NCBI GenBank assembly: GCA_027063545.1
Contig: JAMORN010000013.1
Location: 1 to 7,058 of the forward strand
Direction: 5' to 3'
Origin: JAMORN01 sp027063545 [NCBI: bacterium]
GTDB lineage: Bacteria; JAMORN01
DNA: 7,058 bases
Position 1 is the stretch's first letter; the number at the start of each line of letters is the position of its first letter. This document shows positions 1,303 through 7,004 of this stretch, piece by piece. The position numbers and the translations under genes are program-made. A model generated the notes under the pieces. The model saw nothing but the letters and a program-made list of their open reading frames with translations. It searched no databases and was not told where the DNA came from.

Positions 1303-2520
1303 ATGAATAGACTAAAAAAAGATTTTAATTCATCAAAGTTTTTTTGGTTTTTAGCCTATATAACAATTTTTTCTTTTGTTGTTATATTATTTATATGGAG
1401 TAAAAAAATAGAAGACGAGTCATATAAAATAGCAAATACATATGCAAGATTATATCCTTTACTTTTAGATAACAGATTACCTGATGATATAAGAAGTTTT
1501 TTATTTGATGAGATACTAAAAAATTCTGTAGTTCCCTTTATTATAACAGATAAAGATGGAAATATTCAAACATGGAAAGGTTTTAAAATTACTGTAGAGG
1601 AGGCTAAAAAGGATAGTTCTAAATTGAAAAAGATAAAAAAGATATTAAAACGAATAGATAAAAAGAACCCACCAATACCTCTTTATTATAATTTTAAAGA
1701 TACAACAATAGTTATTGGATATTTACACTATGAAAACCTAACTAATATAGGTATAGTAGAATCAATGCCTATTATTTTATTTTTTATTACATTAATATTT
1801 GCTTATATTACTTTCACTGGATATAGAATTCTTCAGGAGAGGGAAAAAGAAATAATATTTCAAGCTTTAATGAAAGAAACAGCACATCAATTAGGTACTC
1901 CTATATCATCTATTCTAGGTTGGATTGATATTTTAAGGGAGGAATTTAAAGAAAATAATATAATAGATAAAGAAAAGATTCTTGAATATTTAGATGAAAT
2001 TCAAAAAGATGCTGATAGATTAAAGACAATAAATCATAGATTTGAATATATAGGTTCATTACCTGAAAAGAAAGAAGGAAATATCAATAAAACAATAACA
2101 AAAGTTTGTGAGTATTTCAAAAAGAGAATACCTAAAAATATTAGATTATATACATCTTTAGCAGCTGTTCCTAATTTATATTATAATGAAGTATTGATTG
2201 AGTGGGTATTTGAAAATTTGATAAAAAATAGTATAGATGCTTTGTATAAAGTAAAGGATGCTGTTATTTATATTGAAACACTTTACGATGATAAAAAGGA
2301 TGAAATAGTTATAAATTTTTGGGATAATGGTGTTGGTATTCCTTCTGATATAAGAGATAAAATTTTTGATTCTGGTTTTACAACAAAAAATAAAGGTTGG
2401 GGATTAGGGCTTACACTTGTAAAAAGGATAATAGAAGATTATCACCATGGAAGTATTGTATTGAAAGAGAGTATTCCTTATAAAAAGACACTTTTTGAAA
2501 TTAGATTAAAGGTAAGGTAG
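1303..2520 (+). CDS. Membrane sensor histidine kinase, PorY-like/FCB-type, partner of the adjacent PglZ-domain regulator
   Basis: This inner-membrane sensor kinase is predicted to autophosphorylate on His and pass phosphate to the regulator encoded one base downstream. A short basic N-terminus is followed by membrane segment 1 (about 13-32), an extracytoplasmic sensor region of about 120 residues (33-153, Lys-rich, no recognised ligand motif), and membrane segment 2 (about 154-173). I see no HAMP domain; a short helix (174-190) leads directly to the dimerisation helix with KETAHQLGTPISS (191-203), His195 being the phospho-acceptor. The ATPase domain has an N box (ENLIKNS, 304-310), G1 box (DNGVGIP, 341-347), F box (IFDSGFTTK, 354-362) and G2 box (GWGLGL, 365-370). 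The HQLGTP form and the Trp in GWGLGL resemble, from memory, kinases of Bacteroidota and relatives. AAAGGAGA at 1283-1290, inside the serS end, serves as ribosome binding site with a longish 12-base spacer. The signal sensed is unknown, and PorY orthology is inferred, not shown. Confidence 0.9.
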   Translation: MNRLKKDFNSSKFFWFLAYITIFSFVVILFIWSKKIEDESYKIANTYARLYPLLLDNRLPDDIRSFLFDEILKNSVVPFIITDKDGNIQTWKGFKITVEEAKKDSSKLKKIKKILKRIDKKNPPIPLYYNFKDTTIVIGYLHYENLTNIGIVESMPIILFFITLIFAYITFTGYRILQEREKEIIFQALMKETAHQLGTPISSILGWIDILREEFKENNIIDKEKILEYLDEIQKDADRLKTINHRFEYIGSLPEKKEGNINKTITKVCEYFKKRIPKNIRLYTSLAAVPNLYYNEVLIEWVFENLIKNSIDALYKVKDAVIYIETLYDDKKDEIVINFWDNGVGIPSDIRDKIFDSGFTTKNKGWGLGLTLVKRIIEDYHHGSIVLKESIPYKKTLFEIRLKVR

Positions 2521-2521
2521 A

Positions 2522-4075
2522 ATGGGAAATAGGATTTTATGGGTTGATGATGAGGCAGATTTTTTAAGACCTCATATTATTTTTCTCGAGAATAATGGAT
2601 ACAAAGTAGATGTTGTTTATTCTGGGGAAGATGCTTTAGAAATGATTCAAAAAAATACATATGAATTAATATTTTTAGATCAGAACATGCCCGGAATAGA
2701 TGGACTTTCTTTAAATAAAGAAATAAAAGCTATTAATCCTAATATTAATATTGTAATGATAACAAAAACACAAGATATAGATTTAATAAACTCTGCTATA
2801 GGAGCTAATATTGATGATTTTATAGTAAAGCCTATAAATTCGTATCAACTTTTAAGTATTGTAAAAAAGTATATTGATTCATGGAAAATAAAAAAGGATT
2901 CTTTGATATCAAATTATACAATGGATTATCCAAATTTAGATATAGACATATATAATTCGACATTTGATGATTGGGTGAATTTATATCTTAGAGTAATACA
3001 TTGGGATACTCAAATTATAGAAAATAATGAAGAAGAAATAAAACAAATGCATGAGGAGAAAAAAAGGGAATTAAATGATAAGTTTACTTTTTATATAATA
3101 AAGAATTATTTAAAATGGATTAATGATGAATCAGAAGACGCTCCAACAACATCTGTAGATATTTTTGTTGAATATATAGAGCCATATTTAGAGGTGAAGA
3201 AGAAAGTATTTTTTCTTTTACTGGATTGTTTAAGATTGGACCAATGGATTTTTATAAAGAATATATTGAAGGAAAAATTTATAATCAAAGATGACTATTA
3301 TCTTTCTTTACTTCCAAGTTCGACACCATTTTCTAGAAATGCTATTTTTGCTGGACTTTATCCTATAGAAATTTTTAGACGTCATCCTGAAATTTGGGAT
3401 TTTGAGACAGAAGAGAATATGGGAATGAATACATATGAAGAAGAACTTTTTTCTCTTCAACTGAAATTGTTTGGCTATGATACAAGTAAAATGAAATTTT
3501 TAAAAATTTATTCAAATACTGCATATCATAAGATGTTTGATGAAATAAAAACATACGCGGATAAATACGATATAATAGCAGCTGTTTTTACTTTTATAGA
3601 TAAGTTATCTCATGAGATACGAAATTCATCTATTTTAATAGAGTTAGTAAATGATGAGTATGGATATGTAAATTTAACTAAAGCATGGTTTGAAGCCTCT
3701 ATTTTGAGAAGGGTTATAGAATATTTAGGAGAAAAAGGATTTACTATTATTGTTACAACAGATCATGGTTCTGTATGGGGGAAACGTCCATTAAAGATAG
3801 AGGGAGGAAGGAATATATCAAGAAATTTAAGATATAAACATGGAAGTGTTTTTTATACTGATACAAAAAAAGCTTTTATAATAGAGAGACCTGAAGAATA
3901 TAAACTACCGGTAAAAACCCAAGATTTTAAATATGTATTAGCTACTAATGATTATTATTTTGTTTATCCATCAAATTATAATATCTATAAAAAATATTAT
4001 CAAAACTCTATTTATCATGGTGGAATTTCTATGGAGGAATTAATACTTCCAATATCTATTTTAGAATACAAATAG
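2522..4075 (+). CDS. porX: PorX-like response regulator with PglZ (alkaline-phosphatase-fold) output domain
   Basis: This 517-residue two-domain regulator has no DNA-binding domain. The receiver domain (about 3-120) has the acidic pair Asp9/Asp10, phospho-acceptor Asp53 in LDQNMPG, conserved Thr81 and the Lys-Pro pair (103-104). A helical linker (about 120-225, rich in Trp/Tyr and charge) joins it to a PglZ domain (about 228-517). Candidate metal and active-site residues are Asp235 (LLDCLRLDQW), Thr268 (PSSTPFSR; probable nucleophile), Asp360 and His364 (DKLSH), Asp414 and His415 (TTDHGS), His440 (KHG) and His499 (YHGG). Known of the family: Porphyromonas gingivalis PorX is a zinc-dependent phosphodiesterase acting with kinase PorY in control of type IX secretion. 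The length and the stretch ending in RNAIF (272-276) match PorX as I remember it. The ATG follows the kinase stop by one base, so translation is probably coupled. Calling it PorX-like is safe; its target here is unknown, and no secretion genes are in view. Confidence 0.9.
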   Translation: MGNRILWVDDEADFLRPHIIFLENNGYKVDVVYSGEDALEMIQKNTYELIFLDQNMPGIDGLSLNKEIKAINPNINIVMITKTQDIDLINSAIGANIDDFIVKPINSYQLLSIVKKYIDSWKIKKDSLISNYTMDYPNLDIDIYNSTFDDWVNLYLRVIHWDTQIIENNEEEIKQMHEEKKRELNDKFTFYIIKNYLKWINDESEDAPTTSVDIFVEYIEPYLEVKKKVFFLLLDCLRLDQWIFIKNILKEKFIIKDDYYLSLLPSSTPFSRNAIFAGLYPIEIFRRHPEIWDFETEENMGMNTYEEELFSLQLKLFGYDTSKMKFLKIYSNTAYHKMFDEIKTYADKYDIIAAVFTFIDKLSHEIRNSSILIELVNDEYGYVNLTKAWFEASILRRVIEYLGEKGFTIIVTTDHGSVWGKRPLKIEGGRNISRNLRYKHGSVFYTDTKKAFIIERPEEYKLPVKTQDFKYVLATNDYYFVYPSNYNIYKKYYQNSIYHGGISMEELILPISILEYK

Positions 4076-4097: not shown

Positions 4098-4532
4098 ATG
4101 GAAAGAAAAAAGTTCGATGGAATAGTGGAAGATAGTATTCATATAGTTGTAAATTATATTGTAGAGAATTTGAATAAAGGGGATAATGTTCTACTTTATG
4201 GAGACTTAGGTGCTGGGAAAACTACCTTAATAAAAAAGATTTTATCAAAATTAGGATTTGATGAAAATAAAATTCTTTCTCCAACGTTTACTCTTATTAA
4301 CGAATATGAGAAAAATGGATTAAAAGTGTATCATATAGATGCATATAGAATAAATGATGATGAAGCAGAATACCTTGATATTCAATCACTTATGGAAAAT
4401 GAAGATTTTATAGTTTTTATAGAATGGCCTGAAAATATAGAAAATTACTTGTCAGTTTTTTTTAAAAAAATATATATTAGTTATAGCAAGGGTGATATCA
4501 AAAAAAGAGATTATATATTAGAGGGGTTTTAA
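4098..4532 (+). CDS. tsaE: tRNA threonylcarbamoyladenosine (t6A) biosynthesis ATPase TsaE
   Basis: TsaE is the P-loop ATPase that works with TsaD and TsaB to place the threonylcarbamoyl group on A37 of ANN-decoding tRNAs in the cytosol. At 144 residues it has the usual size. It shows the Walker A motif GDLGAGKTT (35-43), the family motif SPTFTLINEY (61-70), HIDAYRI (79-85) carrying the Walker-B-like Asp81, and the IEWPEN stretch (108-113). AAAGGAG at 4086-4092 sits 5 bases before the ATG, which fixes the start. It follows the PorX-like gene after 22 bases and precedes the HDOD gene by one base. From memory, tsaE is also found next to porX in many Bacteroidota, which would make this a conserved linkage; I cannot verify that here. 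A run of eight T and seven A lies at 4456-4470 within the gene, but the reading frame is intact. Confidence 0.95.
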   Translation: MERKKFDGIVEDSIHIVVNYIVENLNKGDNVLLYGDLGAGKTTLIKKILSKLGFDENKILSPTFTLINEYEKNGLKVYHIDAYRINDDEAEYLDIQSLMENEDFIVFIEWPENIENYLSVFFKKIYISYSKGDIKKRDYILEGF

Positions 4533-4533
4533 T

Positions 4534-5382
4534 ATGAATCCAGAACAAAAAGTAAAAGAATTTTTTAAAAATATTGATGAAAACAAGGTTTTAAAATTAC
4601 TAAATTATAAATTAATAGATTTAGCTAATAATATTGATTATCTAAGTGTTGATGAAATTGTAAAATATCTTAGTACAGATGTAAATTTAGTTTCAAAGAT
4701 TTTAAAGATTGTAAATTCACCATTCTGGGGATTAAAGTATAATGTAACTTCTATTAAACAGGCTATAGTTTTATTAGGAAGAGATGAGATAAAGAGAATT
4801 ATATATACTTCTATGTTAATAGCTTCATCAGATAATGCAAATTTAGAAAAAGAGGATAGATTATTTTTACTAAAACATTCATTTATAACTGCAGAACTTA
4901 ATAGAATATTTTATAAAGACGTAGATGCATATACAATATTTTTTAAGAATGAACTATTTTTATTAGGATTATTACATGATATTGGTAAAATATTAATGCT
5001 AACATACATACCTAATTTGAAGGAGCTTATACCTGAATTTGTACAAAACAAGGATATTACATTAGAAAGAGAAAAATTAGGACTAGATCATGCTCTTGTA
5101 GGTGGTTTTTTCATGAGAATAATAGGATATCCTAACTATGAAGAAGTTATAAAGAATCATCATTCAACCAAAGTTGACCAATCATCGACTATATATAGAC
5201 TTTTAGGGTTATCTGACTTAATAAGTTATTTATTTTTGACTAATGAATCTTCAAATGAGCTTATTGATAAATTAGATTTTGAAGAGTGGCCTTTAAATGA
5301 ATATATATCTATTAATAAAGATAAAATTTTGGAGACAATTTCAGAATTATATATGTTAAATATAGATAGTCTTTTTGAATAA
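4534..5382 (+). CDS. HDOD-domain signalling protein with apparently intact HD-type residues
   Basis: This 282-residue soluble protein is essentially one HDOD domain, a family tied to bacterial signal transduction and regulation whose biochemical role is usually unknown. Family marks are KIVNSPFWG (58-66) and VTSIKQAIVLLG (71-82), the hallmark HDOD helix pair. Beyond these it keeps the metal-ligand pattern of catalytic HD phosphohydrolases: His115 (LKHS), His148-Asp149 (LLHDIGK), His186, His209-His210 and Asp228 (LSDLI). I see no receiver, GGDEF or EAL domain and no membrane segment. GAGGGG at 4521-4526, within the tsaE end, lies 7 bases before the ATG, and the gene follows the tsaE stop by one base. 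Its place behind a two-component pair suggests a signalling job, possibly in the same pathway; that is inference from position only. Its stop codon is followed at once by the start of a small gene. Confidence 0.9.
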   Translation: MNPEQKVKEFFKNIDENKVLKLLNYKLIDLANNIDYLSVDEIVKYLSTDVNLVSKILKIVNSPFWGLKYNVTSIKQAIVLLGRDEIKRIIYTSMLIASSDNANLEKEDRLFLLKHSFITAELNRIFYKDVDAYTIFFKNELFLLGLLHDIGKILMLTYIPNLKELIPEFVQNKDITLEREKLGLDHALVGGFFMRIIGYPNYEEVIKNHHSTKVDQSSTIYRLLGLSDLISYLFLTNESSNELIDKLDFEEWPLNEYISINKDKILETISELYMLNIDSLFE

Positions 5383-5385
5383 TTG

Positions 5386-5613
5386 ATGGTATATATTAGA
5401 AGACTCTGGACAAAGGAAGAAATAAATTTTTTAAGACAATTTTATCCTCGAATGGGTCCAAATTGGTGCTCGTGGGTGTTGAATATTCCTATTTTTTTAG
5501 TTGAAAAAAAATCCAAAGAATTAGGGCTTGTTTATAGGAGAGTAAAAGAAAAAGACTATAAGAGAGTTAGTGATAAAGGTGTAATATTAGATATAAAAAA
5601 AAGAAAAATTTAG
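5386..5613 (+). CDS. Small basic protein with SANT/Myb-like helix-turn-helix pattern, function unknown
   Basis: This is a protein of 75 residues (76 if the TTG at 5383 is used). Residues are numbered here from the ATG. The first 50 residues follow the layout of short SANT/Myb-type DNA-binding domains: RRLWTKEE (5-12), a helix ending in FLRQFYPRMG (15-24), a Trp-rich second helix (NWCSWVLNI, 26-34) and a third helix ending KELGLVYR (44-51). The C-terminal third is strongly basic (Lys/Arg runs), fitting nucleic-acid binding. There is no clear Shine-Dalgarno sequence. The HDOD stop (5380-5382) is followed directly by TTG then ATG, so translation probably restarts after termination. I prefer the ATG because TTG starts normally need a good binding site. 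The Trp spacing and intact frame argue for a real gene. It could be a regulator or an RNA-binding protein; I do not recognise a named family member and assign no function. Confidence 0.68.
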   Translation: MVYIRRLWTKEEINFLRQFYPRMGPNWCSWVLNIPIFLVEKKSKELGLVYRRVKEKDYKRVSDKGVILDIKKRKI

Positions 5614-5729: not shown

Positions 5730-7004
5730 ATGAGTTTAAACCAAACCCCAAAGGCGAATCGTCTTCATATAGTACTTCTTGGAAGAACAAATGTAGGTAA
5801 ATCCTCATTTTTAAATTTTATTTCTGGCCAGAATTACGCTATTGTCTCAAATATAGCTGGAACAACAACAGATTTAGTTTATAAAACAATGGAGTTTTTA
5901 CCAATAGGGCCTGTTGTTTGGATAGATACTGCAGGACTTGATGATGAGAGTATATTAGGAGAGTTAAGAAAGAAAAAGACACAAGAAGCAATAAATAGGG
6001 CAGATGTAGGAGTTTTAATCACAGAGGCAGGCAATTGGACTGAGTTTGATCAAAACATATTTGATTTACTTCAGGAGAAAAAACTTCCATTTATAATAGT
6101 TGTAAATAAGATTGATTTATTTGAAGGGGATCCTAAGGAGTATGTTAGGGGGTTAAAAGATAAATTAAATTTTGATAATATTATTTATTTTTCTACAGAG
6201 TTAAAGGATAGAAGAGAGGAATTTTTAAATAATTTTAAAGAATATTTAGTAAAAATTGTTCCAAAGGAGTTTATATCTCAGCCTCCTTTAATTGGAGATT
6301 TAGTTCCAGCAGGTGGGCTTGCTGTTTTGGTTGTTCCTATAGATCTTCAGGCTCCAAAGGGACGTTTAATACTTCCTCAGGTTCAAACTATTAGAGATGC
6401 TTTGGATAATGATGCGTTTGTTATGGTTGTAAAGGAAAGGGAATTACCATTTGCTTTAAGTATTTTAAATAAAAAGCCTGATATAGTTATAACCGATTCT
6501 CAGGTTGTTTTAAAGGTATCTTCCGATGTACCTAAGGATGTTAAATTCACAACATTTTCTATTTTATTTTCTAGATTAAAAGGTGATTTAGTTGAGCAGG
6601 CAAGAGGAGCAGCATATATTGATGCATTAAAATCAGGAGATAAAGTTTTAATAGCAGAGGCTTGTACTCATCATGTTATGGAGGATGATATAGGAAGGGT
6701 AAAGATTCCAAGGTGGATAAGACAATATGTTGGCGGAGATATAGAGTTTGATGTTTATAGTGGATTTGATTATCCAGAAAATTTACAGGAATATAAACTT
6801 GTTATTCATTGTGGTGGTTGTATGTTAAATAGAAAGGAGATGCTTTATAGGCTTCATAAGGCCAAATCATATAATGTTCCTATAACAAATTATGGGGTAA
6901 CTATATCAAAGGTTCATGGGCTATTGGAGAGGACTCTTTCACCTTTTCCAGTAGCATTGATGGCTTATAAAAAGGAATTAAATAAAATAAGAAATGGAAA
7001 ATAA
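5730..7004 (+). CDS. hydF: [FeFe]-hydrogenase H-cluster maturation GTPase HydF
   Basis: HydF is the scaffold GTPase on which HydE and HydG products assemble the 2Fe subcluster before its transfer to [FeFe]-hydrogenase. The GTPase domain (about 10-175) has G1 GRTNVGKSS (18-26), G2 Thr residues in AGTTTD (43-48), G3 DTAG (66-69) and G4 NKID (126-129). The linker and dimerisation region begins with PPLIGDLVPAGG (185-196). The cluster-binding domain has Cys312-x-His314, then 45 residues, then His360-Cys361-x-x-Cys364, the family iron-sulfur ligand pattern, plus NYGV at 387-390. The 424 residues match the family, so nothing is missing. The N-terminus (MSLNQTPKANRLHI) agrees with other HydF proteins and supports this ATG, yet no Shine-Dalgarno sequence precedes it, only T/A-rich DNA. 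hydE, hydG and the hydrogenase are not in the window. The 3' end overlaps the rimO-type gene by 11 bases. Confidence 0.96.
   Translation: MSLNQTPKANRLHIVLLGRTNVGKSSFLNFISGQNYAIVSNIAGTTTDLVYKTMEFLPIGPVVWIDTAGLDDESILGELRKKKTQEAINRADVGVLITEAGNWTEFDQNIFDLLQEKKLPFIIVVNKIDLFEGDPKEYVRGLKDKLNFDNIIYFSTELKDRREEFLNNFKEYLVKIVPKEFISQPPLIGDLVPAGGLAVLVVPIDLQAPKGRLILPQVQTIRDALDNDAFVMVVKERELPFALSILNKKPDIVITDSQVVLKVSSDVPKDVKFTTFSILFSRLKGDLVEQARGAAYIDALKSGDKVLIAEACTHHVMEDDIGRVKIPRWIRQYVGGDIEFDVYSGFDYPENLQEYKLVIHCGGCMLNRKEMLYRLHKAKSYNVPITNYGVTISKVHGLLERTLSPFPVALMAYKKELNKIRNGK

What the first reader, a model, noticed from the sequence alone, without database searches (positions are those of the whole stretch)
1303..4075. 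Sensor kinase and PorX-like PglZ regulator encoded as an adjacent pair
The kinase stop and regulator start are one base apart, so they are almost certainly cognate. In Porphyromonas gingivalis, PorY and PorX are encoded far apart and were linked by experiment. An adjacent pair in what seems a non-Bacteroidota anaerobe would show the ancestral pairing and a role for PorX-type signalling possibly independent of type IX secretion. The PorX assignment rests on visible domain order, length and motifs; the wider role is inference.
Basis: partly seen in the sequence, partly recalled or inferred. Interest (0 to 1): 0.6.

Follow-up and report, generated by a model that had tools for sequence, protein, structure and literature searches.

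The report
Adjacent PorY and PorX signalling genes
This genome from an unnamed bacterial lineage carries a sensor kinase and its regulator, which in well-studied relatives sit far apart, side by side in what looks like their original arrangement, and they come with the same protein secretion machine, not without it.

Summary
In detail: a 405-aa membrane histidine kinase (1303-2520) and a 517-aa receiver-PglZ regulator (2522-4075), one base apart. The regulator is a PorX (539.9 bits, cut-off 300). The kinase is an ortholog of PorY. NCBIfam's 'PorY' model misses it, but also misses real P. gingivalis PorY, recognised by 395 aa, H193, S241, S266 in a genome of ATCC 33277's exact length; kinase cores form one clade. 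PorX and PorY-type kinase co-occur: both in 298, neither in 90, one alone in 7 of 395 Bacteroidota. The order serS-porY-porX-tsaE recurs in four other sampled genomes, plus one split over contigs; halves (serS-porY or porX-tsaE) remain in ten others and in P. gingivalis. An ancestral cluster is therefore likely. Independence from type IX secretion is not supported: the host has SprA and 22 matches to the cargo signal domain. The motor subunit PorL was recognised only in P. gingivalis and G062 of 24 genomes (one short model), so part of the output may differ. Phosphotransfer is inferred.

The parts
1303..2520 (+). porY: membrane sensor histidine kinase, 405 aa, PorY ortholog
1339..1395 (+). first predicted transmembrane segment of PorY (residues 13-31)
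   Evidence: hydropathy
1747..1803 (+). second predicted transmembrane segment of PorY (residues 149-167); residues 32-148 are the likely periplasmic sensor
   Evidence: hydropathy; topology inferred
1885..1887 (+). phospho-acceptor His195 in ETAHQLGTPISS
   Evidence: aligned to published H193 of P. gingivalis PorY
2522..4075 (+). porX: receiver plus PglZ response regulator, 517 aa
   Evidence: NF052313 539.9 bits, cut-off 300; solved PorX 390.5 bits over residues 5-515
2534..2863 (+). PorX receiver domain (residues 5-114)
2678..2680 (+). PorX phospho-acceptor Asp53 (P. gingivalis D58)
   Evidence: D58 from PMC5005315
3200..3790 (+). PorX PglZ domain (residues 227-423)
3323..3325 (+). PorX Thr268, counterpart of the T272 that is mutated in the solved inactive form
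   Evidence: T272A from PMC10951265
20..1294 (+). serS, seryl-tRNA synthetase; upstream neighbour of porY also in other genomes
   Evidence: TIGR00414 536.5 bits; gene order
4098..4532 (+). tsaE; downstream neighbour of porX also in other genomes
   Evidence: TIGR00150 103.8 bits; gene order

Best explanation
This is a PorY-PorX two-component system in its ancestral gene arrangement, serS-porY-porX-tsaE, in a bacterium outside the Bacteroidota that has a type IX secretion translocon and cargo. PorY, held in the inner membrane by two helices, senses a periplasmic or envelope state (signal unknown), autophosphorylates on His195 and passes the phosphate to Asp53 of PorX. Phospho-PorX then acts through its PglZ phosphodiesterase domain and through protein contacts to set expression or activity of the secretion system. 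Shown here: gene identity, orthology, co-occurrence, gene order, conserved residues, presence of SprA and cargo domains. Inferred: phosphotransfer, signal, outputs, ancestral state. In Bacteroidota the same two genes lie apart but are inherited together.
For: PorX: NF052313 539.9 bits vs cut-off 300; 390.5 bits to solved PorX; 11 of 12 checked phosphorylation, metal and catalytic columns invariant in 18 aligned PorX, the twelfth (switch Lys82) kept in the window. Co-occurrence PorX/PorY-type: 20 both, 1, 1, 76 neither of 98 (6 of the 21 kinases built the profile); 298, 4, 3, 90 of 395 Bacteroidota. Ortholog of at least 350 bits in 25 of 26 genomes of the P. gingivalis genus. Order serS-porY-porX-tsaE in window and 4 other genomes, a fifth split over two contigs; half-clusters elsewhere. 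SprA and 22 cargo-domain matches in the host. Phosphotransfer between P. gingivalis PorY and PorX is published (PMC4800418, passages).
Against: No biochemical test. Published porY deletion is milder than porX deletion, so other kinases may feed PorX (PMC8050853, PMC11320123; passages). PorL, the motor subunit PorX binds, was not recognised in the host or in 21 other genomes tested. porY adjoins porX in only 7 of 21 PorX genomes. The pair tree is poorly resolved (2 of 15 inner branches starred), so ancestral adjacency rests mainly on gene order. One PorX genome, G039, has no PorY-type kinase, and seven Bacteroidota have one gene without the other. The host genome is 82.7% complete in 355 contigs.
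Confidence: 0.87

Rival explanations
1. The kinase belongs to another pathway and sits next to porX only because both landed in a housekeeping cluster; PorX is driven by other kinases or acetyl phosphate.
For: Published porY deletion is milder than porX deletion (PMC8050853; PMC11320123). In 14 of 21 PorX genomes the two genes were not found adjacent.
Against: Co-occurrence even where unlinked: 298 of 302 PorX genomes in Bacteroidota. The P. gingivalis ortholog binds and phosphorylates PorX (PMC4800418, PMC5005315; passages).
Confidence: 0.06
2. Adjacency is derived or spread by horizontal transfer of a four-gene block, so it says nothing on ancestry.
For: The 18-genome tree is poorly supported and its root is arbitrary; phyla of the sampled genomes are withheld.
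Against: Half-clusters serS-porY (G006, G061, G079) and porX-tsaE (G001, G007, G045, G051, G054, G062, G074, P. gingivalis) are what a break of the four-gene cluster would leave; the flanks are housekeeping genes.
Confidence: 0.15
3. PorXY here works independently of type IX secretion.
For: PorL recognised only in P. gingivalis and G062 of 24 genomes. G062, a Bacteroidota genome, keeps PorX and PorY with no SprA match and one cargo-domain match, so the pair can perhaps outlive the translocon.
Against: The host has SprA and 22 cargo-domain matches; SprA accompanies PorX in 19 of 21 genomes.
Confidence: 0.08

Closest known systems
PorX (P. gingivalis PGN_1019; F. johnsoniae PorX)
   Same: Same receiver-PglZ architecture and length; 36% identity to P. 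gingivalis PorX; all 12 checked residues kept in the window; one full-length copy in the host.
   Different: Encoded one base after its kinase; host outside Bacteroidota; PorL partner not recognised.
PorY (P. gingivalis PGN_2001)
   Same: Two membrane helices, short linker from the second helix to the kinase core, phospho-His at 195 vs 193, same ETAHQLGTPISS and GWGLGL motifs; one clade.
   Different: Adjacent to porX and downstream of serS; P. gingivalis porY is about 1.1 Mb from porX.
NCBIfam NF052314 'T9SS_HK_PorY' kinases
   Same: Membrane histidine kinases of similar length.
   Different: A different group: the window kinase scores 42.6 bits (cut-off 350), P. gingivalis PorY does not have it among its best 25 NCBIfam hits, one member (L042) sits behind an OmpR-type regulator, and it follows PorX poorly (over cut-off in 79 of 302 PorX genomes; phi 0.24).

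Membership tests
PorX | Receiver domain plus PglZ domain, matching the curated PorX model over its cut-off | tested here: met
PorX | Phospho-acceptor Asp and PglZ catalytic/metal residues | tested here: met
   12 of 12 checked residues kept in the window; 11 of 12 columns invariant in 18 PorX, the Lys column has Gln in two others (roles other than D58 and T272 are recalled)
PorX | Phosphodiesterase activity; binding to SigP and PorL | not testable with these tools
   needs purified proteins
PorY | Orthology to P. gingivalis PorY (PGN_2001) | tested here: met
   161 bits, 30% over 333 aa; one clade; one high-scoring copy per positive genome (whole or as pieces)
PorY | Two membrane helices shortly followed by the kinase core (TM2 149-173, H193 published) | tested here: met
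   window TM2 149-167, H195; NF052314-type L042 has TM2 138-156, H226
PorY | Phosphotransfer to PorX | not testable with these tools
   published for P. gingivalis only, as far as seen (PMC4800418, passages)
NCBIfam NF052314 | Score over curated cut-off 350 | tested here: not met
   42.6 bits; true PorY also fails, so the model does not define PorY
Type IX secretion host | SprA/Sov translocon | tested here: met
   C259 fragment 261.9 bits, cut-off 200
Type IX secretion host | Cargo with C-terminal signal domain TIGR04183 | tested here: met
   22 matches at E up to 0.001; those printed are over cut-off; of 14 control genomes 2 ring, 1 over cut-off
Type IX secretion host | PorL/GldL motor subunit | tested here: inconclusive
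   no match over cut-off (best E 0.017, with a stop inside); positive controls G741 and G062 found; 62-residue model, 82.7% complete genome
Type IX secretion host | PorK, PorM, PorN, PorV, SigP | not tested

The most novel reading that the evidence does not exclude
PorXY predates the PorL-PorM motor. It began as an operon coupled to the SprA translocon or to envelope state, with PglZ phosphodiesterase signalling as its original output; the PorL contact and the separation of the two genes were added on the way to Bacteroidota.
Probability: 0.25. Interest if true: 0.72.

Novelty: new variant of a known kind. Interest (0 to 1): 0.55.

Why it matters
In P. gingivalis the two genes are called orphans, and their exclusive partnership is doubted because porY loss is milder than porX loss (passages). 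Joint inheritance in hundreds of genomes and a shared gene cluster in distant lineages support PorY as PorX's general partner. The adjacent pair offers a clean system for phosphotransfer work. The result also shows that NCBI's PorY model labels a different kinase group and leaves real PorY unlabelled. That porX and porY co-occur with type IX genes was already reported (PMC10951265, passage).

Tried and rejected
First idea, that the kinase is a new family distinct from PorY: suggested by the low NF052314 score and the separate NF052314 kinase in G062; rejected when P. gingivalis PorY itself proved to be the HQLGTP kinase.

Search for named relatives in genome contigs gave only receiver-domain matches; the host's name and phylum stay unknown. 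Single-sequence structure prediction of PorY failed (mean pLDDT 38.6), so no fold search was made. Pfam finds no sensor domain in any of 19 PorY-type kinases. Promoter and terminator scans gave little more than shuffles (53 against 47.3, sd 7.3; 2 against 1.4, sd 1.4). Papers: only titles and abstract starts were seen in the listings; a search for porX with tsaE returned none. Passages only were read in PMC10951265, PMC11320123, PMC4800418, PMC5005315, PMC5706477, PMC8050853, PMC11285876, PMC7323717 and PMC7712824. No passage or listing seen reports an adjacent porY-porX pair; this covers only that library and those searches.

Full report
What is there. The window is a whole 7,058-base contig of a genome bin of 1.57 Mb in 355 contigs, 82.7% complete. 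Seven genes or ORFs run on the + strand: serS 20-1294, kinase 1303-2520, regulator 2522-4075, tsaE 4098-4532, an HDOD protein 4534-5382, a 76-aa ORF 5383-5613 and hydF 5730-7004. The kinase stop and regulator start are one base apart.

The regulator. It passes NCBIfam's PorX equivalog (539.9 bits, cut-off 300). It aligns over residues 5-515 with the solved regulator 7pv7 (390.5 bits) and over 4-514 with 8ted (355.3 bits). That 7pv7 is P. gingivalis PorX is borne out by its 99.6% identity to the P. gingivalis genome; that 8ted is F. johnsoniae PorX is recalled. Of 12 checked columns (phosphorylation site, switch and PglZ residues) all 12 are kept in the window and 11 are invariant in 18 aligned PorX; the Lys column has Gln in two others. 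It is the only full-length PorX match in the host; five other matches cover the receiver domain only.

The kinase. NCBIfam's model NF052314, named PorY, gives it 42.6 bits against a cut-off of 350, which at first suggested an unrelated kinase. A profile of six PorX-adjacent kinases (A1) was searched in 98 genomes. 21 have a clear ortholog: at least 229 bits in one piece in 20 genomes, and G006 as two contig-end pieces of 144 and 143 bits; the next unrelated kinase scores 132. Six of the 21 were the profile's own rows. A wider profile (A2, 19 rows) finds one copy of at least 350 bits in 25 of 26 genomes of the genus of G577; four of these also show another kinase at 76-78 bits. One of these genomes, G741, has a contig of 2,354,886 bases, the size given for P. 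gingivalis ATCC 33277 (PMC5706477, passage), with PorX 99.6% identical. Its ortholog is 395 aa with H193, S241 and S266, as published for PorY: length and H193 in PMC5005315, S241 and S266 in PMC7712824. The window kinase matches it with 161 bits over 333 aa, and L042, an NF052314-type kinase, with 25 bits. The 20 PorY-type kinase cores form one clade: 100/99 against 23 other kinases, bootstrap not settled, and SH-aLRT 100 against 28 others including L042, by a quick method in which L042 is a long branch. So the window kinase is a PorY. The true PorY does not have NF052314 among its best 25 NCBIfam hits, the 25th of which scores 52.6 bits; that model describes other kinases.

Co-inheritance. 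In 98 genomes spread over the domain, PorX (over cut-off) and PorY-type kinase: 20 both, PorX only G039, kinase only G055, neither 76. In 395 Bacteroidota: 298 both, PorX only G312, G458, G474, G488, kinase only G355, G402, G462, neither 90. NF052314 over cut-off occurs in 82 of 395, 79 with PorX and 3 without. Phi is 0.94, 0.95 and 0.24 respectively; genomes are related, so these are descriptive. Earlier work had reported that porX and porY co-occur with type IX genes (PMC10951265, passage). 39 Bacteroidota appear in the printed rows of both; 16 of them have both genes on one contig, none closer than about 12 kb.

Gene order. Stretches around porX and porY were fetched for these genomes and scanned with window proteins, two P. 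gingivalis proteins and one further PorY at E up to 1e-4. serS-porY-porX-tsaE is complete in the window, G058, G009, G003 and G069, and split over two contigs in G025. G066 has porY-porX without recognised flanks. serS-porY without porX: G061, G079, and G006, where porY itself is broken by contig ends. porX-tsaE without an adjacent porY: G001, G007 (porY about 5 kb further on), G045, G051, G054, G062, G074 and P. gingivalis. G030, G039, G053 and G081 show neither, and G055 has porY alone. Thus porY adjoins porX in 7 of 21 PorX genomes. The two kinds of half-cluster are what a break between porY and porX would leave, so I take the four-gene cluster as ancestral. The concatenated tree of 18 genomes needs three changes of the adjacency state but has only 2 of 15 inner branches well supported and an arbitrary root. 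PorX and PorY distances correlate (r 0.75), which any two vertically inherited genes could show.

Type IX secretion. The host has a 1,246-aa open frame of SprA cut by a contig start (261.9 bits on the part held, cut-off 200) and 22 matches to the cargo C-terminal domain (of 14 control genomes two ring, one over cut-off). SprA over cut-off accompanies PorX in 19 of 21 genomes; exceptions are G039 (weak SprA pieces below cut-off) and G062 (none); SprA without PorX: G055, G089. A paper on the cargo domain states that type IX systems may also occur in some other phyla of the same superphylum (PMC11285876, passage). GldL_N was found over cut-off only in P. gingivalis and G062, of 24 genomes; a 62-residue model may miss distant PorL. 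PorK, PorM, PorN, PorV and SigP were not tested.

Mechanism. Shown by others in P. gingivalis: PorY autophosphorylates and phosphorylates PorX (PMC4800418, passages), PorX binds PorL (PMC5005315, passages) and SigP (PMC7712824, passages), and an inactive PorX was crystallised with pGpG in its PglZ site (PMC10951265, passages). Conserved residues make the same chemistry likely here. The signal is unknown; no Pfam sensor domain was found in 19 kinases. The PorL contact may be missing here.

Limits. That the host lies outside Bacteroidota follows from its kinship to G062 being only 'same domain' and from G062's phylum holding G440, whose order holds G577, whose genus holds P. gingivalis. I did not test whether the other genomes with an adjacent pair are Bacteroidota; G062 and P. 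gingivalis form their own well-supported pair in the tree.

Noticed in passing
NCBIfam NF052314; L042:1486-2766; L176:1474-2661: NCBI's 'T9SS_HK_PorY' model does not recognise experimentally studied P. gingivalis PorY and labels a different kinase group, one member of which follows an OmpR-type regulator.
   Followed up: yes
G062 (L010, L090, L211): A one-contig Bacteroidota genome, rated 100% complete, keeps PorX, PorY and GldL but has no SprA match and one cargo-domain match: a candidate for PorXY outliving the translocon.
   Followed up: partly
G055, G089: SprA over cut-off but no PorX over cut-off; G089 also lacks a PorY-type kinase.
   Followed up: no
window 2035-2076 (PorY residues 245-258), P. 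gingivalis S241: The conserved RFxxIG(S) stretch of this kinase family (R, F invariant, I and G nearly so in 19 rows) ends at the position of S241, site of a published suppressor substitution in P. gingivalis PorY (PMC7712824).
   Followed up: partly
window 4534-5613: An HDOD-domain protein and a 76-aa ORF without Pfam or NCBIfam matches continue the gene run after tsaE.
   Followed up: no
window 5730-7004: hydF, [FeFe] hydrogenase maturation GTPase (539.4 bits), fits an anaerobic host.
   Followed up: no
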